DNA from: Xanthomonas sp. 3793 | GTDB lineage: Bacteria; Pseudomonadota; Gammaproteobacteria; Xanthomonadales; Xanthomonadaceae | Length of the DNA: 64,000 nt | NCBI RefSeq assembly: GCF_024806835.1 | Contig: NZ_JANTYU010000006.1 | Coordinates: 124,001-188,000 of the forward strand | Direction: 5' to 3' | Shown: one piece after another, positions 43,427 through 53,959 of the stretch | How positions within the stretch are numbered: position 1 is the stretch's first letter | Layout: each line of letters opens with the position of its first letter | The notes under the pieces: model-generated | The model's database searches: none | Seen by the model: the letters and a program-made list of their open reading frames with translations, nothing else | What the model was told of the DNA's origin: nothing | Program-made: the position numbers and the translations under genes

Positions 43427-44374
43427 TCACCGCACGCCCGGCATGGCGGCGCTGTTGGCCAAGCCAGCCACCTTTTTGCATTCAGCCGCATTCAATCGCG
43501 TCGCCACGGCCTGGATAAACGCCGACACCGCACGCGGCAGATGGTGCCGGCTCGGATACAGCGCGTACAGGCTCTGGCCCTTGCGTTGAAAATCCGGCAA
43601 CACCACGGCCAGGCGACCTTCGTGGATATCGGGCCAGGTGAGCGCCTGCGGCAACAATGCGATGCCGAGCCCGGCCACCGCCGCAAGCCGCAGCGCGCGC
43701 GCAGTAGTGGCGGCCATGCGCGCCTGCACCTGGACGTCTTCGGCAAGCCCGGACGGGCCGACCAGCGTCCAGGTGGCGTACCCGCTCGGATGCGGGAAAC
43801 TGAGGCAGTCGTGCTGCGGCAATTCGTCCAGCCGCAGCGGCCTGCCGCGTGCCTGCAGGTAGCCGGGGCTGGCCACCAGCACATCGTTGGTGTCGGCCAG
43901 GATCTGGCGGCCGACATAGCCCAGGTCCGTCACCACACCGCCGCGGAAGGCCACATCGATGCGCTCGGCGATCAGGTCGGCCTTGCCATCGCTGAGCACG
44001 AATTCCAGGCGCACGCGCGGATGCGCGGCGAGAAACTCGCCCACCCATTCGACGCGGAAAAAATCCAGGAAATCCGCAGGCGCCGCCACCCGCACCAGAC
44101 CGGCGGCTTCATCGCCACCGGCCACCAGGCTCTGCCCGGCCGAGGTCAGCCCGTCCACCGCATCGGCGCAACGCTCGTAAAAGGCTTGGCCGGCGTCGGT
44201 GAGGGTGAGCTTGCGAGTGGAGCGTTGCATCAGGCGTGTGTCCAGCTGCGCTTCCAGCTGCTGCACGCGCCGGCTCACGCTGTTGGGCGCGGTGCCTAGC
44301 CGGCGTGCGGCCTCGGCAAAGCTGCCGCTGCGCACCACCTGCACGTATAGCGCGATGTCATTGAGATCGATCAC
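43427..44374 (-). CDS. LysR family transcriptional regulator
   Basis: 315-aa regulator with an N-terminal helix-turn-helix (FAEAARRLGTAPNSVSRRVQQLEAQL, about residues 18-45) and a periplasmic-binding-fold effector domain. It starts with GTG at 44374, with AAGG 7 nt upstream. Members related to DsdC/AaeR-type LysR proteins usually control a neighbouring divergent operon, but here the gene next to its 5' end is non-coding repeat DNA. The nearest candidate target is azoR, which converges on it. Confidence 0.92.
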   Translation of the reverse strand: MIDLNDIALYVQVVRSGSFAEAARRLGTAPNSVSRRVQQLEAQLDTRLMQRSTRKLTLTDAGQAFYERCADAVDGLTSAGQSLVAGGDEAAGLVRVAAPADFLDFFRVEWVGEFLAAHPRVRLEFVLSDGKADLIAERIDVAFRGGVVTDLGYVGRQILADTNDVLVASPGYLQARGRPLRLDELPQHDCLSFPHPSGYATWTLVGPSGLAEDVQVQARMAATTARALRLAAVAGLGIALLPQALTWPDIHEGRLAVVLPDFQRKGQSLYALYPSRHHLPRAVSAFIQAVATRLNAAECKKVAGLANSAAMPGVR

Positions 44375-44540
44375 CAGCGGCCTTGGCGCGTGTAAACGCG
44401 GAGTCTAAGCGTGGCGCCTGCGCGTCGTCGATCATTGTGCTGTGGAGGGCTGTATGCGGTAACTCGGCCACTCAGAAGTGGCGAAACAGCGCGGAGGGGT
44501 CAGGCGCAGAGCATGGACGCTGCGGTTTGGCTGCAGGGCC

Positions 44541-44640
44541 CTTGCCCGCCCACCATCGCGGGACACGCCGTGAATCCGTCCATGGAGGCTCTTACGCGGC
44601 ATCCATGCCGCGTAAGGTCCCGCGACGGTGGGCGGGCAAG
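44541..44640 (-). repeat. Palindromic element, unit 1 (nested inverted repeats)
   Basis: Outer arms 44541-44564 and 44617-44640 (24 nt) are complementary at 23 of 24 positions. Inside lies a perfect 12-bp hairpin, CTTACGCGGCAT with ATGCCGCGTAAG (44591-44602 and 44605-44616), and the block AGCCTCCATGGACGG (on the minus strand). Read on the minus strand it has the same order of conserved words as unit 2. I recall similar words (GGCATGGATGCC, CGGCGTGTCCCGCGA) in other xanthomonad intergenic DNA. Confidence 0.85.
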
Positions 44641-44780
44641 GACCGGTGGAGAGGGTCGGTATGCAGGGTGCAAGCAATGCATGACGTGCCCCACTGAATG
44701 ACGACGCATCCGATCAGTGTGCCAATGCAAGCCGAGCAACGGACAAGCTTTTTAAGAGAGCAACCGAATACCTCTCTGGT

Positions 44781-44883
44781 GCGGTGTCCTCGCCGCTTGC
44801 GGGACCGTGTGGCGGCATGGATGCCGCCACCGAACCTACAGGGACGTACTTGCGGCGTGTCCCGCGAGCGGCGAGGGCACCGC
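44781..44883 (+). repeat. Palindromic element, unit 2 (nested inverted repeats)
   Basis: Outer arms 44781-44805 and 44859-44883 (25 nt) match at 23 of 25 positions, both differences being G-U compatible in RNA. An inner perfect 10-bp hairpin, GTGGCGGCAT with ATGCCGCCAC, spans 44809-44830. Shared core words with unit 1: GCGGGAC, GGCGGCATGGATGCC, then CCT-CA-GGACG, and CGGCGTGTCCCGCGA. The arm sequences outside this core differ from unit 1, yet each arm pairs with its own partner. Confidence 0.85.
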
Positions 44884-45071
44884 GCGCTCGACCGACTGAG
44901 CAGTTGACGCTGCACCAAAACGACACCAAGCCGCACCTCTCGCCGGCTCAGCGGTGATGACCGCTGCGATGGGTTGGTTGCAGCTGAGCGAAGCTACGGC
45001 TTGGCGACAGCGCCTTGCCCGCTCCGAAGCCTGTTTACCAGACGACGAGACGGTGGAGACGGCCTGCACGC

Positions 45072-45293
45072 TCACTGCGCACGCGTCAGCCCATGGTGGT
45101 GCAGCAACTGCCGCAAGCGACGCTGCACGCGTTGCAGATCGGCTTCGGCCGCCTCATCCAGGATGCCTTTGGCCAAGGCATCGAATTGCGGCCAGAACTG
45201 GCTGGGGTCACGTACCCGTTGCGGCCACACCGACAACATCCTGCCCAGGTCGGAAAGCTGGTGATTGGTGTGGGTGCGTGTGCGCATGCTCAT
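45072..45293 (-). CDS. Small protein of unknown function, overlapping the ndvB-like gene
   Basis: 73-aa protein starting MSMRTRTHTNHQLSDLGRML. The ATG at 45293 overlaps the TGA of the glucan synthase (ATGA), and the last codons of that gene supply a GGAGAGGCGAC ribosome-binding site, so coupling is likely. The sequence is helical and charged (DALAKGILDEAAEADLQRVQ, RRLRQLLHHHG) with no signal peptide or membrane segment. I recognise no family. A cytosolic partner or regulator of the synthase is speculation from position. It is easy to miss because the same frame runs open far into ndvB. Confidence 0.6.
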   Translation of the reverse strand: MSMRTRTHTNHQLSDLGRMLSVWPQRVRDPSQFWPQFDALAKGILDEAAEADLQRVQRRLRQLLHHHGLTRAQ

Positions 45294-48200
45294 GTCGCCT
45301 CTCCCGGCCAGTCCAGGGCGACAGCGTGGACCTCGCCGTCGTCGACCAGGGTGAAAGCAAGCTCGGCTTGCGTCACTCCGTCGATTTCCAGCCGTGGCTG
45401 GACCCCCGGGCGCTGGGTGACGTCGACGACGTAGGTGCTGCTGCCGAAGCGATAACGCAGCTGATAGCCCGGCCAGCCGGCCGGGATGCACGGCACGATA
45501 TGCATGCGGGTGCCATGCCGTTGCAGACCAAGCAGCGATTCGGTCAGCAGCCGGTACATCCAGCCGGCCGCGCCGGTGTACCAACTCCAGCCGCCGCGGC
45601 CGGCGTGCGGCGCCACTGCGTAGACATCGGCCGCCAGCACATAGGGTTCGGCCTTGTAACGCTGCGCGGCGTCGGCATCCAGGGCGTGGTGGATCGGGTT
45701 GATCATCCCGGCCAGTTGCCAGGCGCGCGCGCTGTCGCCGAGATGGGCGAAGGCCATCGCCGCCCACACCGCCGCATGCGTGTACTGGCCGCCGTTCTCG
45801 CGCACGCCGGGCACGTAGCCCCGGATATAGCCCGGGTCGTGGCCGGTACGATCGAACGGCGGCATCAGCAGTTTGACGATGCCCGCATCGGCATCGACCA
45901 GGTGCTGGTACATGGCCTGCATCGCCTGCGCGCTGCGCGCCGGATCCATCGCTCCGGACAGCACCGACCAGCTCTGCGACAACGAATCGATGCGGCATTC
46001 GTCGGAACTGTGCGAGCCCAGCACGGTGCCGTCGTCGAACCAGGCGCGCCGGTACCACTGCCCATCCCAGGCGTGTTGTTCCAGCGCTACGCGCAAGGCC
46101 TGCGCATGGGTGTGGCAGCTGGCGGCGAAGACCGCATCGTCGCGTTGCGTGGCCACGGCCGAAAAGCGCAGCAGGGTGTCGTAGAGGAAGAAGCCCAGCC
46201 AGACGCTTTCGCCCTTGCCGTCCTTGCCGACCCGGTTCATGCCGTCGTTCCAGTCGCCGCTGCCGATCAGCGGCAGGCCGCGCTCGCCCAGTCGCGTCAT
46301 GCCGCGCTGCAGGGCGAGCACACCATGTGCGTACAGCGACTGCACGTTGCCGGTGAGCTGCGGCAGGTCGTAATACGATTCCTCGTCGGGCTTGAGCGCG
46401 CGCCCGTCGATGAAGCCGACAGGCTCGTCGAGCACGCTGGCGTCGGCGGTGGTGTCCAGATAGCGGCATAGCGCCTGCGGCAACCACAGGAAGTCGTCCG
46501 AGCACTGCGTGCGTACGCCGCGATCTTGTGGCGGGTGCCACCAATGCTGCACATCGCCCTGCACGAATTGATGCGCGGCGCTGCGCAACAGATGGGCGCG
46601 GCTGAGCGCCGGTTGCGCGTGCACCATCGCCATGCTGTCCTGCAATTGATCGCGGAAGCCGAACGCGCCACCGGACTGGTAATAGCCGCTGCGCGCCAGG
46701 AAGCGGCAGGCGATGGTCTGGTAGAGCAGCCAGCCATTGGCCAGCAGATCCACGGCAGGGTCGGGCGTGCGCACCTGCACGCTGCCGAGCACCTGTTCCC
46801 AGTGCCTGCGCACGTCCAGCAATGCGGCCTGCGCGGTGGCCACGCCGCGGCTGCTGCGCGCCAGTTCCAGCGCAGCGTCGCGGTTGCTGGCCGCACCCAG
46901 CCGGAACACCGTCTCAAAGCTCTGTTCGGCCGCCAGCGTCAGCGGGATCTGGATCGCCGCGCATGGGTCCAGGCCGGCACCCACGCGCCCGGACAACCGC
47001 TGCCGGGCGAGCGCGGCCGGTGCGGCCAGGCTGCCGTTGCGGCCGATGAACTCGCTGCGGTCGGCGGTGATGCTGCGGCTGGGCGCATCGGCATCGAAGA
47101 ACGCCACGCGCCCGTCGAACTCGGTGTTGTACGGGTTGCGTGCGGTCAGCACGCTGCTGCCCAGGTCGACCTCGCTGACCACATGCAGCTGCGAGCGCGT
47201 GCGGATGTCACCTAGCACCCATTCCACATAGCCGGTCACGCTGAGACGGCGTGGGCGCCCGGACAGGTTCTTCAACCGCAGATGGCTGAACTTGATCGGC
47301 CGTTGCGCATCCACGAACACCCACAACTCGCTGCCGATGCCGTGTTCGGTATGGCTGTAGACGCTGTAGCCGAAGCCATGGCGCACCGTGTAGCGGCCGC
47401 TGCCGCGGCACGGCAGCGCCATGGGCGACCACACTTGCCCGGTGTCTTCGTCGCGCAGATAGAACGCTTCGCCGGAGGTATCGCCGACCGGATCGTTATG
47501 CCATGGCGTCAGCCGGAACTCGTGCGCGTTCTCGGCCCAGCTGTAGCCGGCGCTGCTGTCGCTGACCACGCTGCCGAACTGGGCGTTGGCCAGCACGTTG
47601 CACCACGGTGCCGGCGTGGGCATGCCCTCGTCCAGGGTGATGCGGTACTCGCGGCCGTCGGCGGCGAACGCGCCCAGGCCATTGTCGAACAGCACCGCTT
47701 CGTCGGATGCGGCCTGCAGGGTGCGGTCCAGATAGGCGGCGTGGGTGCTGGCCAACGCGTCGGCGCTGTCCAGCTGCTGGATCGGCTCCAGCAGCGGCGG
47801 CTGCGCGCGTGCGCTGGGGTGGCGCTGCAGTTGCGCGTCCAGCGTGCCGTTGGCATCGCACAGGATCGCGCGCGCCACGGTCTGCAGCAGCACGCGGTCT
47901 TCCTGCGAAATGTGTTCGATGGCGCGCACGAAGATGCCGCCGGGACGGTCGAGGACATTGGCTTCGGGATCGGCGGCGATCAGGCCCAGGATGGCGTCCT
48001 GCAACTGTTGGCGATAGCCGGCCTGGCTTTCGTTCCAGATCACCAGATCCGCGCGCAGGCCCTTCAGGCGCCAGTACGCGTGTGCCTGCACCAGCTGGCG
48101 CGCCAGGTCGAGATTGTCCGGGTCGGTGATGCGCAACAGCACGATCGGCAGATCGCCGGAGATGGCATGACTCCACAGCGCCGACTGGCCACGATGGTTG

Positions 48201-51200
48201 TGCAGCAGTACTTCGTTATCGGCGCGCAATTGCGGGTCGACGAACAGCACGCGCGCGGCCAGCCGCTCGTAGAGCATCGCATCTTCCAGCGAGGCGTCGA
48301 TCTGCCGGCGCGTGACCTGGCTCTGGGTCAGCGCCAGGTCGAACACCCGATCGGCCAGACGGCGGTCGCGGTATTTGTCGATCAGCGCGGTGCAGGCCTC
48401 GCGTTGGGTCCCGACGCCATAGACCATGTCCACCTGCGCCTGCTGGTCGGGCGCCAGCGAAATACGGCAGCGGATCGCCACGATCGGGTCCAGCACCGAG
48501 CCGGCCGCGCCGGACAGGTTGGCGTGCGCGTGCAAGGCAAGCGGATTGCGGGTGCTGCGCCCGCGCCCGACGAAGGCGGCGCGATCGGTCTCGTAGGAAA
48601 TCGTCGCCACGTCGGCATCGTGCACGGCCACCAGATGCAGCATCCACGGCTGCGCCTCGTCATGCCCGCGCGGGCGCCGTGTACAGAGCAATGCCTGCTT
48701 GTCGGCCAGGATCTCGGTCTGCACGAACAGGTTGCTGAAGGCCGGATGCGCCTCGTCGGCCTGCGCCGGCGCCAGCACCACTTCGGCATAGGTGGTGATT
48801 TCGATCACGCGCGTCTGCCGCGAACGGTTGCGGATGCGCAGCCGGCGCATCTCCACGTCGTCCTCGGCGGAAATGGCGATTTCCAGATGGCTGTCGTAGC
48901 GCTGGTGGCTGCCCTTGAACTCGGCTTTCGCGTCGGAAAAAATCGCCTCGTAGCGCTCCACCGGCACGCAGGTGGGTTGATGCGCGGCCGACCACACCGC
49001 GCCGCTGTCCACATCGCGCAGATAGCAGAAGGTGCCCCAGTGGTCGCGGGTGCCGTCCTCGCGCCAGCGGGTCACCGCCATGTCGCGCGCGCGGCTGTAG
49101 CCACCGCCGGCCGAGGTCAGCATGCCGTGGTAACGCCCGTTGGAGAGCAGTTGCAACGCCGGCTGGGCCAGATCGGGGTCGCGATGGATGCGCAGGGCCA
49201 TGCCCGCCTCGGTGGGAACCGGGCGCTCTGCGGCCTGGGCCAATCCCTTGACGTAGACGCCGGCACGCGGCGCGCGCTCCTGCAACAGCAGCAGCGTGGC
49301 CTGGAATTGCGGATCGGCGACAAAGCGCTGTTGCATCGGCGCATCGCGCAACACGTGGTCCAGTGCCAGCAGCGCCATGCCCTGATGGTGCGACATGAAC
49401 GAGCGGACCACGGCGTGTTGTTCGCCACGCGGCACCCGCGACGGGGTGTAGTCGATCGCCTCGTACAGCCCGAAGCGGCCGCCGAATCCCAGCGCCTGCA
49501 ATTGCTGCAGATTGCGGCACGCCGCATCCGGGTCGACCATCAAGGCCATCGCGCTGGCATACGGGGCGATCACCAGATCCTGGCCCAGGCCGCGCTTGAG
49601 TCCGAGCCCGGGCACACCGAACGCGCGGTATTGATAATTGCGCCGCGTATCGACCGTGTTGTAGCCCGATTCGGACACGCCCCAGGGCACATCGCGCGCG
49701 GCGCCGTAGCGGATCTGCGCCTGCACCGCGCCGCGCATCGAGCGGTTCAGCAGCGTCTGCGGATAGCTGGGCATCACCAGGTCGGGCATCAGGTATTCGA
49801 ACATCGAGCCGCTCCACGACAGCAGCGTCGGCTCGGCGCCGGTATCGGTCAGGGTGCGCCCGAGCGCGAACCAGCTGTCCTGCGGCAGCTTGCCCTGGGC
49901 GATGGCCACGAAGATCCCCAGGCGCGCCTCGGAGGCCAGCAGATCGTAATGGCCGCTGTCCAGGCGACGGTCGTCGACGTTGTAGCCGATCGACAACAAC
50001 TGCGGGGCACGGTTGTAGAGAAAGTCGTAATCCATCTGCGCCAACTGCCCGGCGCGATGCGCCAGCCGGTGCAGTTCCTGCACACGGTTGGCGGCCCAGC
50101 TCTGCACGTTCGGTGCGCAGTCGCTGGCGGCCAGTTGCCGCAGCGTGGCGACCATGGCACCCGTCGTCCCTGCTGCGTGCGGATCGGTGTCGGCCAGTGC
50201 CGGTGCGCAGTGACTCAACTCGGCCAGGGCGGCCTTGCAACTGGCCACCAGCCGCTGCGGCCACGGTTCTTCGTCGTCGCCGCTGACCGGCATCAGCGCC
50301 AGGATCCGCTGGCTTTGCGCCAACAGCAGGCGCAGCGCCTTGTCGGCCTGGGGCGGGCTTGGCGCGGGCTGGCTGCAAAGGCCCTGTACGCCCTGCGACA
50401 TCGTATCCAGCGCATCCAGCGCATCGGTGGTGACGTTGCGTGCCCTGGCGTGCGATGCCAGCACGCTCAAGGTGTCGGCCAGGCCGTCGAACACCGCCAT
50501 CGAGACCGCCGGCGCCTCCACCAGCGCCAGCAACCCTTGCCGCAGCGTCAGCAGATGACCGGCCAGATTGCCGCTGTCGACGGTGGAGACATAACGCGGC
50601 AGCAGCGGCGCCAGCGTTTCGGTGTCGTACCAGTTGTAGAAATGGCCGCGGTGGCGCGGCAGCGATTCCAGGGTGGTCAGCGTATCGGCCACGCGGCTCA
50701 TGACGCCGGCCACCGTCAGGTAGCCCAGATCGTAGGCGGCCAGGTTGGCCAGCAGGCCCAGCCCGATGTTGGTCGGCGAGGTGCGGTTGGCCACCACCGT
50801 GACCGGATATTCCTGCACGTTGTCCGGCGGCAGCCAATGATGCTGCGCGGTGCAATGGGTTTCGAAGAACGCCCAGGTGCGCCGCGACAATCCGCCGAGG
50901 AAAGCGCGCTGCTCCTGCGACAATTGCGCCACCGGGGCGGCGGGCTGCCCGCCCAGCCAGGCCATCAGCCAGGGCGCGCCCATCCACGCCACGCCAAGCG
51001 GCAGTGCCACCCACAGCGCCACCGGCGACCACCACGCAACCGCTGCAACCACCAGCGCCGCGGCGCAGGCGGCGCCGGCCATCAGGCGATGTTCGGCATT
51101 GCCGCTGCGCGCGCTGCGTTCCACTTCGCTGGAGGGCGCCCACTGCAACAGATGGCGATGGGTGATGGCCATCCGCACCAGCGTGCGGGCGATGGCCGCC

Positions 51201-53959
51201 AGTTGCAGCCCGGCCTCGAACGGCAGGCAGGCCAGCACCACGCCGGTGCGCAACAGGTACTGACGCAGCCCCACGCCGACCTGGCGCGCGTGATGGCGCA
51301 ACCCCAGACCTTCGGGCGGGTGCGCCAGCGCATAGAGCGCCGAGCACAGCCCCGGCAGCAGCCACAGCACCAGCAGCCAGGCTGTCCAGCGCAGCGGCGT
51401 GGGCGAGCACAGCCAGCCGATCAGCAGCAGGCCGAAGGCGGCCGGCGCCACCAGGCTGCGGCGCAGGTTGTCCAGCAGCTTGCCGCGCGATAGCCACGAC
51501 AACCGGTTGCGCGCGCGCTTGCCGCCGCGATCGGGCACCCACGGCAGCAGCCACGGCAACAGCTGCCAGTCGCCGCGTACCCAGCGCGCGCGGCGCTTGG
51601 CATCGGTGGCGTAGCGTTGCGGATGGCGCTCGTACAGGCGCACGTCGCTGAGCAACCCGGCGCGGACATAGCAGCCTTCCAGCAAGTCGTGGCTGAGCAC
51701 GCGGTTGTCGGGGAAGCGCCCGGCCAGCACCTGCTCGAAGGTCGCCACAGCATAGATGCCCTTGCCGATGAACGAGCCTTCGCCGAACAGGTCCTGATAC
51801 ACGTCCGACACCACCCGCGTGTACGGATCGATGCCCGGTTCGATCCCGAACATGCGCGCAAAGCGCGATTCGCCACCCTCGCTCATGCCGGTGCCCAGGC
51901 CGGGCTGCAGGATGCCGTAGCCGGCTTCCACGTACTGCCCGGACGCATCCAGGCGCGGCATGTTCAACGGATGCGACATCGCCCCGACCAGGGCACGTGC
52001 CGCATCCCTGGGCAGATGGGTATCGCTGTCCAGCGTGATCACATAGCGCACCCCCACCAGGACGGCGACATCGCCCTGCACCTGCAGGAAGTCGCTGGCG
52101 GCCTGCAGCGGCGCATCCTCGGCGCACAGCAGGCGGTTGAGCGCTTCGAGCTTGCCGCGCTTGCGCTCGGCGCCCATCCAGCAGCCTTCGCCCGCATTCC
52201 ACTGGCGGGCGCGGTGCAGCAGGAAGAACCGATCGCCGTGCGCGTCGGCATAGGCCGCGTTGAGCCGGTCGATGTGCTGCGCCGCATGCGCCACCAGCGC
52301 CATGTCCGCCGGCAACAGCGCCTGCGCCGCATCGAGAAAATCGGTGAGCAGCGCGAAGTACAGCTGCGCGTCGCGGTTGGCCAGGTAATGCACCTCCAGC
52401 GCACCGACCAGCTCGTCGATGGCATCGGTACCGGCCAGCATGCTCGGCATCACCACCAGCGTGCGGCAATCGGGCGTGATGCCGGCACGCAGGTCCATGC
52501 GCGGCAACGGGCGCGGGCGTACCCACAGCGTCGCCACCCAGTTGACCAGGGCAATGCCCAACTCGCTGGCCGCCAGCAGCGCGATGCCGGCAGTGATCCA
52601 CCACAGCGCCGGCGGCAATGCGCCGGCCCACTGCAGCAACACGCCGGTCCACAGCGCCGCGATCGTTGCGATCGGCAACAGGTACGTCGGCAGCGCGACG
52701 CGACGCACGCGCAGACGCGGTGGCGTCGGCGTGCCGGGCGTGGCCGGATCGCCCAGCGCGGCACGCAACAGCGGCAACCCCGCATCCACCAGGTAGTAAC
52801 CCACGTGTGCGGCCACCGGTTCGGCCGCCTGCGCTTGTGCGGCCAATCGCAGCACGGTGTCGGCCACCGTGGGTTCGTCGCACTTCATGCGGTGGGCCAG
52901 ATGTTCCACCACGTGCCGGTACGTATCGCGGGTCTGGAAATCCATGCGCGCGTACACGACGGCCGGATCCTTGCGCAGGATCTGCTCGACCACGCTCATG
53001 GTTTCGACAAACTCGCGCCAATCCATCTCGTCCAGAAAGCGCAGGCTGCCGATGCTGTTGCCGATCGATACCTGGTCGGCCGCCTGGCGCTGGCTTTCGG
53101 CATGCACCATTCCCTCGACGCTGTGGCCTTCGCTCGCCAGCCACTGTTCCACCCAGGCGCTGGCCATCGACAGCACCGGGCCGCGGCCCTGGATACCGCG
53201 CGTCAGTTCGGCGACGAACGCGCCACTGGCCGGCGGCTGCGAGCGCGCCATGTCGGCCACCACTCCCACCACGTCCTTGGGCTGCGCGGCGGCCGTGGCG
53301 TTCAGCATAGCGGCCCAATGCGCAGCCAGAGCCGTGTCGCGCCCGTCGTGCATGATGCCGTCGGCAACGCGGCGCAGGTTGTCGATCAACGCCAGCCGCA
53401 ACACGATCGGAATGGCCCACAGTTCGCCGAGCTTGAGCGGTGCCACCTGTTGGTAGGCCGCGATGAAACGGCTCAGCGTGATCGCATCCACGCGCCCATC
53501 GCCATGCGCCACGACCTGCAACCCCAACTCGTAGACCCGCGGCAGACCGATGGAGTTCGGCGTACGCAGGCGCGGCAACTGGCGGCTGTAACCAGGTGGA
53601 AGATGCTGGCGCGCCAGGCGGATCTGCTCTTGGACCAGATAATCGTTATCCAGCAGCCATTCGCCGGCAGGGTGCAGGCGCACGCCAGCGGCCGCCATCT
53701 CGTTCAGGCGCGATGCCGCGCTTTCGAGCGCGCGTTGATTGGACTTCAGCCCCGACAACAACAGCTCGCGTGCCGGGCCGGTGTAGAGCGTGTGCGTCGT
53801 TGCCAGCGCGCGCGCCAGCATTTCCATCTGCTCGTCGCCGAGCAATGCAGCGCCGGGCACGGCCGCATCCCGAGCCGGGTGCGCCTGCAGCGATGGTGCT
53901 GGTTGGGTAATCGATTGCCACCAGAGAGAGAACGCAGACGCTTTCCGCTTTGGCGGCAT
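45290..53959 (-). CDS. ndvB: Cyclic beta-1,2-glucan synthase (NdvB/ChvB-like)
   Basis: 2889-aa inner-membrane multidomain enzyme that builds, elongates, trims and cyclises periplasmic beta-1,2-glucan from UDP-glucose. In order: N-terminal helical region; membrane segments near residues 430-480; GT84 glycosyltransferase with DxD in TLDSDTHLPRDAA (about residue 640); further membrane segments near 830-890 and 970-1010; glycoamylase-like part (FYNWYDTETLAPLLPRYVS); then two carbohydrate-binding GH94-type regions and a phosphorylase-like catalytic part with GSGDWNDGMNRVG (about residue 2565). Length is close to A. tumefaciens ChvB. In X. campestris this glucan has been linked to suppression of plant defence. 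The ATG at 53959 has only a moderate AGGCA upstream. Confidence 0.95.
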   Translation of the reverse strand: MPPKRKASAFSLWWQSITQPAPSLQAHPARDAAVPGAALLGDEQMEMLARALATTHTLYTGPARELLLSGLKSNQRALESAASRLNEMAAAGVRLHPAGEWLLDNDYLVQEQIRLARQHLPPGYSRQLPRLRTPNSIGLPRVYELGLQVVAHGDGRVDAITLSRFIAAYQQVAPLKLGELWAIPIVLRLALIDNLRRVADGIMHDGRDTALAAHWAAMLNATAAAQPKDVVGVVADMARSQPPASGAFVAELTRGIQGRGPVLSMASAWVEQWLASEGHSVEGMVHAESQRQAADQVSIGNSIGSLRFLDEMDWREFVETMSVVEQILRKDPAVVYARMDFQTRDTYRHVVEHLAHRMKCDEPTVADTVLRLAAQAQAAEPVAAHVGYYLVDAGLPLLRAALGDPATPGTPTPPRLRVRRVALPTYLLPIATIAALWTGVLLQWAGALPPALWWITAGIALLAASELGIALVNWVATLWVRPRPLPRMDLRAGITPDCRTLVVMPSMLAGTDAIDELVGALEVHYLANRDAQLYFALLTDFLDAAQALLPADMALVAHAAQHIDRLNAAYADAHGDRFFLLHRARQWNAGEGCWMGAERKRGKLEALNRLLCAEDAPLQAASDFLQVQGDVAVLVGVRYVITLDSDTHLPRDAARALVGAMSHPLNMPRLDASGQYVEAGYGILQPGLGTGMSEGGESRFARMFGIEPGIDPYTRVVSDVYQDLFGEGSFIGKGIYAVATFEQVLAGRFPDNRVLSHDLLEGCYVRAGLLSDVRLYERHPQRYATDAKRRARWVRGDWQLLPWLLPWVPDRGGKRARNRLSWLSRGKLLDNLRRSLVAPAAFGLLLIGWLCSPTPLRWTAWLLVLWLLPGLCSALYALAHPPEGLGLRHHARQVGVGLRQYLLRTGVVLACLPFEAGLQLAAIARTLVRMAITHRHLLQWAPSSEVERSARSGNAEHRLMAGAACAAALVVAAVAWWSPVALWVALPLGVAWMGAPWLMAWLGGQPAAPVAQLSQEQRAFLGGLSRRTWAFFETHCTAQHHWLPPDNVQEYPVTVVANRTSPTNIGLGLLANLAAYDLGYLTVAGVMSRVADTLTTLESLPRHRGHFYNWYDTETLAPLLPRYVSTVDSGNLAGHLLTLRQGLLALVEAPAVSMAVFDGLADTLSVLASHARARNVTTDALDALDTMSQGVQGLCSQPAPSPPQADKALRLLLAQSQRILALMPVSGDDEEPWPQRLVASCKAALAELSHCAPALADTDPHAAGTTGAMVATLRQLAASDCAPNVQSWAANRVQELHRLAHRAGQLAQMDYDFLYNRAPQLLSIGYNVDDRRLDSGHYDLLASEARLGIFVAIAQGKLPQDSWFALGRTLTDTGAEPTLLSWSGSMFEYLMPDLVMPSYPQTLLNRSMRGAVQAQIRYGAARDVPWGVSESGYNTVDTRRNYQYRAFGVPGLGLKRGLGQDLVIAPYASAMALMVDPDAACRNLQQLQALGFGGRFGLYEAIDYTPSRVPRGEQHAVVRSFMSHHQGMALLALDHVLRDAPMQQRFVADPQFQATLLLLQERAPRAGVYVKGLAQAAERPVPTEAGMALRIHRDPDLAQPALQLLSNGRYHGMLTSAGGGYSRARDMAVTRWREDGTRDHWGTFCYLRDVDSGAVWSAAHQPTCVPVERYEAIFSDAKAEFKGSHQRYDSHLEIAISAEDDVEMRRLRIRNRSRQTRVIEITTYAEVVLAPAQADEAHPAFSNLFVQTEILADKQALLCTRRPRGHDEAQPWMLHLVAVHDADVATISYETDRAAFVGRGRSTRNPLALHAHANLSGAAGSVLDPIVAIRCRISLAPDQQAQVDMVYGVGTQREACTALIDKYRDRRLADRVFDLALTQSQVTRRQIDASLEDAMLYERLAARVLFVDPQLRADNEVLLHNHRGQSALWSHAISGDLPIVLLRITDPDNLDLARQLVQAHAYWRLKGLRADLVIWNESQAGYRQQLQDAILGLIAADPEANVLDRPGGIFVRAIEHISQEDRVLLQTVARAILCDANGTLDAQLQRHPSARAQPPLLEPIQQLDSADALASTHAAYLDRTLQAASDEAVLFDNGLGAFAADGREYRITLDEGMPTPAPWCNVLANAQFGSVVSDSSAGYSWAENAHEFRLTPWHNDPVGDTSGEAFYLRDEDTGQVWSPMALPCRGSGRYTVRHGFGYSVYSHTEHGIGSELWVFVDAQRPIKFSHLRLKNLSGRPRRLSVTGYVEWVLGDIRTRSQLHVVSEVDLGSSVLTARNPYNTEFDGRVAFFDADAPSRSITADRSEFIGRNGSLAAPAALARQRLSGRVGAGLDPCAAIQIPLTLAAEQSFETVFRLGAASNRDAALELARSSRGVATAQAALLDVRRHWEQVLGSVQVRTPDPAVDLLANGWLLYQTIACRFLARSGYYQSGGAFGFRDQLQDSMAMVHAQPALSRAHLLRSAAHQFVQGDVQHWWHPPQDRGVRTQCSDDFLWLPQALCRYLDTTADASVLDEPVGFIDGRALKPDEESYYDLPQLTGNVQSLYAHGVLALQRGMTRLGERGLPLIGSGDWNDGMNRVGKDGKGESVWLGFFLYDTLLRFSAVATQRDDAVFAASCHTHAQALRVALEQHAWDGQWYRRAWFDDGTVLGSHSSDECRIDSLSQSWSVLSGAMDPARSAQAMQAMYQHLVDADAGIVKLLMPPFDRTGHDPGYIRGYVPGVRENGGQYTHAAVWAAMAFAHLGDSARAWQLAGMINPIHHALDADAAQRYKAEPYVLAADVYAVAPHAGRGGWSWYTGAAGWMYRLLTESLLGLQRHGTRMHIVPCIPAGWPGYQLRYRFGSSTYVVDVTQRPGVQPRLEIDGVTQAELAFTLVDDGEVHAVALDWPGEAT

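What the first reader, a model, noticed from the sequence alone, without database searches (positions are those of the whole stretch)
44541..44883. Two ~100-bp palindromic elements with a conserved core and covarying outer arms
Units at 44541-44640 (minus) and 44781-44883 (plus) share core words GCGGGAC, GGCATGGATGCC and CGGCGTGTCCCGCGA in the same order, but their 24-25 nt outer arms have different sequence. In each unit the left arm pairs with the right arm of the same unit (23/24 and 23/25). Arms that change yet stay paired indicate selection on folding, either as structured RNA, or as DNA cruciform. The inner 10-12 bp hairpin also differs between units while staying perfectly paired. They sit head-to-head in a gene-free 700-bp gap. 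I recall similar words elsewhere in xanthomonad genomes, so this may be a family with many copies and no assigned job.
Basis: partly seen in the sequence, partly recalled or inferred. Interest (0 to 1): 0.75.

Follow-up and report, generated by a model that had tools for sequence, protein, structure and literature searches.

The report
Dispersed paired hairpins with CsrA-type loops
The two palindromes are copies of a widespread family of folded repeats in gammaproteobacteria, related to repeat and RNA families known from elsewhere, and their two conserved loops look like docking sites for the regulatory RNA-binding protein CsrA/RsmA.

Summary
Units A (44538-44644, minus) and B (44778-44885, plus) share a two-hairpin core and carry different 27-bp arms, each paired with its own partner. 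This genome holds at least 108 units; relatives occur across Gammaproteobacteria. Over 41 copies, 40 from outside the genus, 39 of 43 pairs change on both sides and 95.2% of cells are paired.

Two findings change the picture. (1) Both hairpins end in a C-ANGGAN-G hexaloop; the two N vary, A/GGA and the closing C-G hardly do, and the GGAs lie 23 nt apart: the published dual-site CsrA/RsmA motif. (2) The family is not orphan: the printed Yersinia YPAL/RU-2 repeat has the same core, and Rfam TwoAYGGAY (RF01731, proposed in 2014 to bind CsrA) shares a locus with it, although the window copies do not match RF01731.

In this genome the units form head-to-head A/B doublets (54 of 55 neighbours opposite and heterotypic), never between divergent genes (0 of 51); the orthologous site holds 0-4 units. 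Best reading: MITE/REPIN-like doublets whose transcripts present CsrA-binding hairpins. CsrA binding is inferred, not measured. Against it: Rfam Ysr224 lies on the opposite strand, and one near-complete carrier lacks detectable CsrA.

The parts
44538..44644 (-). unit A (107 nt, read on the minus strand)
   Evidence: R1 hit G000:C6:168538-168644, 123.6 bits; fold z -10.05
44617..44643 (-). unit A outer stem, 5' arm
   Evidence: structure
44538..44564 (-). unit A outer stem, 3' arm
   Evidence: structure
44591..44616 (-). unit A hairpin 1
44601..44606 (-). unit A hexaloop 1 AUGGAU (CsrA-type ANGGAN)
   Evidence: sequence; loop statistics
44567..44589 (-). unit A hairpin 2
44578..44583 (-). unit A hexaloop 2 AUGGAC (CsrA-type ANGGAN)
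   Evidence: sequence; loop statistics
44645..44777 (.). 133-nt spacer between the divergent heads; the 20-30 nt next to each unit are conserved among copies
44778..44885 (+). unit B (108 nt)
   Evidence: R1 hit G000:C6:168778-168885, 110.6 bits; fold z -8.25
44779..44805 (+). unit B outer stem, 5' arm
44859..44885 (+). unit B outer stem, 3' arm
44806..44832 (+). unit B hairpin 1
44817..44822 (+). unit B hexaloop 1 AUGGAU
   Evidence: sequence
44834..44856 (+). unit B hairpin 2 (one mismatch at 44834)
44840..44845 (+). unit B hexaloop 2 AGGGAC
   Evidence: sequence
44511..44537 (-). conserved 3' flank of unit A (20-30 nt)
   Evidence: flank conservation over 46 A copies
44886..44905 (+). weakly conserved 3' flank of unit B
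   Evidence: flank conservation over 38 B copies

Best explanation
The pair is one copy of a dispersed, non-coding, MITE/REPIN-like element: two different 107-nt units (A and B) head to head. SHOWN: each unit is a long stem of free sequence that carries two small hairpins with C-ANGGAN-G hexaloops at fixed spacing; the family is multi-copy and spread over Gammaproteobacteria; the core is that of YPAL/RU-2. INFERRED: when a neighbouring gene is transcribed through the doublet, the unit lying in sense folds, its long stem protects and presents the two GGA hexaloops, and one CsrA/RsmA dimer docks on both; with about a hundred copies this tags or stabilises many mRNA 3' ends and titrates CsrA. The doublet orientation gives either reading direction one sense unit. 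The A/B difference keeps the two inverted units from pairing with each other. The mobilising enzyme is unknown.
For: Loops: in 57 non-echo rows of 62 from other genomes ANGGAN in 49 (hairpin 1) and 56 (hairpin 2), closing C-G 57 of 57 in both, GGA-GGA distance 23 in 51 of 54 measured. Position 2 of loop 1 is T in 24 of 25 training copies, yet T 29, G 21, A 1, C 1 in the 52 six-nt loops outside, while A, G, G and A stay (51, 51, 51, 52 of 52). R2 set: both loops C-ANGGAN-G in 31 of 33. Literature: RsmE contacts A and GGA of an ANGGAN hexaloop, N variable; one dimer bridges sites 10-63 nt apart, best above 18 (PMC7652899 section 4). TwoAYGGAY was proposed to bind CsrA (PMC4333381 passages). Covariation. 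CsrA gene in G000 and in 33 of 33 R2-positive genomes of 398; no unit found in the 20 listed class members without CsrA (p 0.0017, kinship not controlled). Position: 26 convergent, 25 codirectional, 0 divergent of 51 clusters with both neighbours v 9 of 42 other gaps divergent. Copy-number change and unit-free sites. No U-run after units, so not intrinsic terminators.
Against: No binding or expression data. Rfam Ysr224, from Yersinia, matches loci of this family on the opposite (UCC) strand. In the class sample 4 of 45 carriers show no CsrA; three are 67-88% complete, but G314 is 98% complete, and the association there is not significant (p 0.35). Single copies show no sense bias: 5 sense, 4 antisense of 9. 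The full SELEX word RUACARGGAUGU occurs in 6 of 57 outside rows and 0 of 108 own units. Hairpin 1 is very stable, and SELEX ligands mostly had short stems. Many own copies have altered loops (ANGGAN 91 and 85 of 108).
Confidence: 0.6

Rival explanations
1. Purely mobile DNA: a REPIN/MITE-type doublet whose hairpins are the single-stranded ends recognised by a transposase; the loops are its recognition sites and any RNA role is accidental.
For: Strict A/B opposite pairs, 54 of 55 neighbours, and arrays with recurring 53 and 26 nt linkers; 0-4 units at the orthologous site, three sites without units; YPAL was reported with target duplications and filled/empty sites (PMC2229807 passage).
Against: No linked transposase: the three Y1 transposase genes found in this genome lie at least 40 kb from any listed unit; other transposase types were not searched. 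It does not predict ANGGAN with exactly the two N free, nor carriers only among CsrA hosts. It does not exclude the RNA role: both can hold.
Confidence: 0.25
2. mRNA 3'-end stabiliser or attenuator: a long stem that blocks exonucleases or Rho, independent of CsrA, as proposed for REPs and YPAL.
For: Avoids divergent regions, so every cluster with two called neighbours follows at least one gene; very stable folds; YPAL reported as expressed with upstream genes and perhaps affecting transcript stability (PMC2229807 passage).
Against: A plain stem would not need two loops nearly invariant over the class while the stem itself is free.
Confidence: 0.1
3. The arm covariation is a mutational artefact: template switching in quasipalindromes corrects one arm from the other without selection.
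For: Known mechanism (recalled, no call); would act on such long arms.
Against: G-U cells exceed A-C cells about 5 to 7 fold on the GGA strand, which a strand-symmetric process does not give; inner helices also covary. Distinct-variant counts are weak, so a contribution is possible.
Confidence: 0.05

Closest known systems
YPAL / RU-2 (Yersinia palindromic sequences)
   Same: The printed 168-nt RU-2 (PMC2759123 Table 1b) has the same core order, hexaloops AAGGAT and ATGGAT, C-G closed, GGA-GGA 24; its 61-nt core aligns to window units A and B at z 7.1 and 7.6 over shuffles and to 41 of 41 A5 copies at z 6.5-13.5; it is 78-91% identical over 76-116 nt to L324-L326, which R2 also finds. Dispersed, intergenic, many copies.
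   Different: About 167 or 130 bp; no A/B head-to-head doublets in the passages I saw; other arms. RU-2 itself was not scored with R2. The original paper (De Gregorio 2006) was not seen.
TwoAYGGAY RNA (Rfam RF01731, clan CL00106)
   Same: Long variable stem with two ANGGAN-type hairpins; several copies per genome in many of the 17 positive genomes; the five opposite-strand pairs within 200 bp that I saw are all divergent. L173 matches both RF01731 (55 bits, cut-off 43) and R1 (65 bits).
   Different: Window copies give no RF01731 match even at E 10; none over cut-off in 15 named carrier loci; hairpin 2 and what follows it differ.
Ysr224 (Rfam RF02770)
   Different: Modelled on the opposite strand, in all the matches compared, with another fold.
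REP/BIME/REPIN elements and RAYTs
   Same: Dispersed inverted doublets, regular arrays, heterodimers, mostly outside genes.
   Different: REPs are 20-40 nt with GTAG/CGTC tags (PMC3733652, PMC2817692 passages); these are 107 nt, untagged, without a linked Y1 transposase.
CsrB/RsmXYZ-type sponges and RsmU
   Same: GGA motifs in loops, bound by CsrA/RsmA (PMC7652899, PMC7694677 passages).
   Different: Single loci with several sites; here many loci with two sites each, binding not shown.

Membership tests
TwoAYGGAY RNA (RF01731) | reaches the family's gathering score | tested here: not met
   no match in the window at gathering; none round the units at E up to 10
TwoAYGGAY RNA (RF01731) | two hairpins with AYGGAY terminal loops | tested here: inconclusive
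   unit A: AUGGAU and AUGGAC fit; unit B: AUGGAU fits, AGGGAC does not
TwoAYGGAY RNA (RF01731) | long, sequence-variable outer stem | tested here: met
   27 of 27 outer pairs change on both sides
YPAL/RU-2 | shared conserved core | tested here: met
   printed RU-2 has the same core and loops; R2 finds L324-L326, which are 78-91% identical to RU-2
YPAL/RU-2 | 167 or 130 bp length | tested here: not met
   107-108 nt units in doublets
YPAL/RU-2 | target-site duplication | not tested
   ends of the doublet not resolved to the base
dual-site CsrA-binding RNA | ANGGAN hexaloops closed by a pair | tested here: met
   both window units
dual-site CsrA-binding RNA | sites 10-63 nt apart, best above 18 | tested here: met
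   23 nt in 51 of the 54 outside rows with a distance
dual-site CsrA-binding RNA | host encodes CsrA | tested here: met
   G000 E 1.3e-25; but no CsrA found in 4 of 45 carriers of the class sample
dual-site CsrA-binding RNA | measured binding | not testable with these tools
   needs EMSA or RIP
REP element with RAYT | 20-40 nt with GTAG-type head, RAYT flanked by copies | tested here: not met
   unit length and ends; the three Y1 genes found are not flanked
intrinsic terminator | U-run after the stem | tested here: not met
   0 sites in the gap; longest T run in the 15 nt after the unit is 2 or less in 108 of 108 own units and in 39 of 41 A5 copies

The most novel reading that the evidence does not exclude
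A global RNA-binding regulator has a transposon-like ligand: one pan-gammaproteobacterial element family (YPAL, TwoAYGGAY and the xanthomonad A/B doublets being branches of it) spreads CsrA-dimer docking modules to the 3' sides of about a hundred genes per genome, forming a distributed CsrA sponge and rewiring the CsrA regulon as it moves.
Probability: 0.4. Interest if true: 0.85.

Novelty: new variant of a known kind. Interest (0 to 1): 0.62.

Why it matters
If true, a xanthomonad palindrome family, an Rfam RNA of unknown function, a Yersinia MITE and a Yersinia sRNA entry are one family with one ligand, and CsrA/RsmA has a mobile, genome-wide binding platform that the Rfam models tried here do not see in the window. 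For Xanthomonas, where RsmU is the RsmA-sequestering sRNA named in the paper whose passages I saw (PMC7694677), it would bear on how RsmA is titrated. It is directly testable with one EMSA and with existing RIP/RNA-seq data.

Tried and rejected
Rfam at gathering on the window: nothing; the best weak hits to microRNA families are chance fits to a long hairpin. Intrinsic terminator: rejected. Classical REP/RAYT: rejected for length, ends and lack of a flanked Y1 transposase. Terminal repeats of a dead transposon: two subfamilies with covarying arms and conserved cores argue against simple decay, though altered copies exist. Integron attC was considered because its arms vary yet pair (recalled); not tested, put aside because here the conserved part is the apex. 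Sense-orientation bias relative to genes: none found. Plasmid carriage: no match to unit B among 72,556 plasmid records; the unit of L324 matches, over half its length, 5 of 5,426 E. coli genomes, 4 of the 5 places on plasmids. Co-occurrence with CsrA in the first class sample: not significant. Passages of PMC9788540 and PMC7694677 describe CsrA/RsmA sRNAs but no such repeat. Passages of PMC5193452, PMC11661157, PMC7657543 and PMC2267715 added nothing on a ligand.

Full report
What is there. Each folds into a 27-bp outer stem, a stable hairpin 1 and a small hairpin 2, far beyond shuffles (z -8.25 and -10.05). They lie in a 697-bp gap between a LysR-type gene (43427-44374, minus; Pfam LysR_substrate and HTH_1) and the minus-strand ORF 45072-45293, which follows a 2,856-aa GH94-domain protein (45290-53860, minus). 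Genes on both sides run leftward, so unit A is the one in sense.

A family in the genome. A covariance model from 25 own copies (A2, R1) gives 137 matches at E <= 0.01 with 150 candidates scored. Leaving out 29 entries that are opposite-strand echoes of the same palindrome, 108 units remain, in 53 clusters: 27 doublets, 16 singles, 10 longer arrays. By arms they sort into 56 A and 52 B, three of them with a small margin. Of 55 neighbouring pairs, 54 join one A and one B in opposite orientation (40 divergent, 14 convergent), and one is A+A+. Divergent gaps cluster at 53 (11 exactly, 17 of 40 at 38-53), around 130-150 and around 200; convergent gaps are 26 or 27 in 11 of 14. The dispersed element is therefore a head-to-head heterodimer that can be repeated in tandem, like a BIME. 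Conservation also reaches 20-30 nt beyond the units on both sides, least at the 3' side of B.

Where it sits. A home-made codon-usage gene caller put 26 clusters between convergent genes, 25 between codirectional genes and none between divergent genes; two clusters lie at contig ends; no cluster overlapped a called gene by more than 25 nt. Other gaps of 150 bp or more in the same loci: 9 of 42 divergent; p 0.0005. Single units in codirectional gaps: 5 sense, 4 antisense, so no strand preference. At the locus orthologous to the window I searched nine loci, the own included: two units in the own copy and in L295, two and a weak third in L296, four in L297, three in L298 and in L299, none in L300-L302. 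In L300, L301 and L302 the matched flanks lie about 174, 38 and 34 bp apart, where the window has about 520-650 bp. Units have thus been gained or lost there; which of the two is not shown.

How wide. 31 of 31 genomes of the genus sampled, own included, with 2 to 126 matches each (126 being the number scored); 32 of 121 in the order, 45 of 274 in the class with R1, 33 of 398 in the phylum with R2, every one in the class. Outside the genus these are lower bounds, since only 9-32 candidates per genome were scored. Rfam at gathering names no unit in 15 of these loci.

Covariation. On 41 gap-free copies, 40 of them from outside the genus (A5), 39 of 43 pairs change on both sides and 95.2% of 1,763 cells are paired (shuffles 57.1%, slid partners 35.4-44.0%). 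0 of 500 shuffles reach four of the five measures; 17 of 500 reach the number of further pair types. All 27 outer pairs covary at 98.4% paired, while the closing C-G of both hairpins and G56-C78 never change; one pair that I drew in hairpin 1 (31-52) is unpaired in 36 of 41. These copies were found with a model of nearly this structure, so cells paired is inflated somewhat, but that model came from two arm types only. G-U cells exceed A-C cells 49 to 9 (A3, 57 rows), 313 to 47 (A4, 108 rows; swollen by pairs shared through descent) and 74 to 15 (A6, 33 rows) on the GGA strand. Counting distinct variants within subfamilies the excess is modest (51 v 37, p 0.17; 35 v 19, p 0.04 in copies of 90 bits or more).

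The loops. Both hairpins end in C-ANGGAN-G. In 57 rows from other genomes (two from a genus member) the two N positions take all four letters in both loops, while A, GGA and the closing pair are nearly or fully fixed (ANGGAN in 49 of 57 for loop 1, five of the misses being alignments with another loop length; 56 of 57 for loop 2). The GGA-GGA distance is 23 in 51 of 54. The CsrA review PMC7652899 (section 4 read) states that RsmE contacts the A and GGA of an ANGGAN hexaloop, that N is variable, that SELEX gave RUACARGGAUGU with mostly six-base loops, and that one dimer bridges sites 10-63 nt apart, best above 18. The full SELEX word occurs in 6 of 57 outside rows and in 0 of 108 own units. For TwoAYGGAY the same reading was proposed in 2014 (PMC4333381 passages).

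Kin. (a) Rfam RF01731 does not match the window, but L173 is matched by both RF01731 (55 bits) and R1 (65 bits, E 1.4e-14); R1 also matches L168 at 38.7 bits. RF01731 has matches in 17 of 274 class genomes, and the five opposite-strand pairs within 200 bp that I saw are all divergent. (b) The RU-2/YPAL sequence printed in PMC2759123 contains the core with hexaloops AAGGAT and ATGGAT, 24 nt apart. Its 61-nt core aligns to units A and B at z 7.1 and 7.6 over letter shuffles, and RU-2 is 78-91% identical over 76-116 nt to L324-L326, which R2 finds. Papers report YPAL as intergenic, with target duplications of 3-26 bp, targets with dyad symmetry, filled and empty sites, and expression with upstream genes (PMC2229807 passage), with 37-144 copies in ten Yersinia species tabulated and 2 in Y. 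ruckeri (PMC2847712 passage). (c) Ysr224 (RF02770), a Yersinia pseudotuberculosis sRNA (PMC9029176 passage), matches L324-L326 above cut-off on the strand opposite to the GGA loops. If the strand is right this shows that such loci are transcribed, and it is the main difficulty for the CsrA reading. I found no paper that holds YPAL together with CsrA or TwoAYGGAY. In the listings that I saw (15 of 123, 15 of 147, 3 of 3 and 15 of 141 papers) no title or abstract start describes the xanthomonad repeat; the library lacks most subscription journals, and I did not see the original YPAL paper.

CsrA co-occurrence. In the first class sample 41 of 45 carriers and 194 of 229 others have CsrA (p 0.35; 35 of 36 v 177 of 200 among near-complete genomes, p 0.14). 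The four without it are G128 (75% complete), G188 (88%), G219 (67%) and G314 (98%); a relaxed search found nothing over the cut-off. In the second sample 33 of 33 carriers have it, and none of the 20 listed class members without CsrA is among the carriers (p 0.0017); kinship is not controlled and further CsrA-negative genomes were not listed.

Mechanism, step by step. Shown: the architecture, its conservation, the covariation, the dispersal and the positional bias. Inferred from published CsrA biochemistry: one dimer on two loops. Inferred: read-through transcription from neighbouring genes presents the sense unit; the long stem acts as clamp and shield; many copies add up to a sink. Unknown: how the doublets move; the only transposase family that I searched (Y1) has no member near a unit.

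Verdict. A real, widespread element, a new xanthomonad branch and arrangement of a kind known in pieces; the likely ligand is CsrA/RsmA. My odds: kinship with YPAL about 0.95, CsrA binding about 0.65, distributed-sponge role about 0.4.

Noticed in passing
45072-45293 (minus): 73-aa ORF overlapping the end of the GH94 gene, no Pfam match; its coding score is low.
   Followed up: partly
45290-53860 (minus): 2,856-aa protein with two GH94 supersandwich stretches, a GH94 catalytic domain and a glucoamylase domain, as in cyclic beta-glucan synthases (the last recalled).
   Followed up: partly
L333:1018-2258: Six same-strand units in tandem at about 227-bp period in one genome (G593), unlike the head-to-head doublets.
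   Followed up: no
L324-L326: Rfam Ysr224 is modelled on the strand opposite to the conserved GGA loops; the family may be mis-stranded or both strands may be expressed.
   Followed up: partly
L344:4001-4087: A partly matching unit on an E. coli wastewater plasmid, between a small hypothetical ORF next to an ISKpn26 fragment and an alcohol dehydrogenase gene: possible horizontal carriage.
   Followed up: partly
L064, L065, L066: Three Y1-type transposase genes in this genome, none next to a listed unit.
   Followed up: partly
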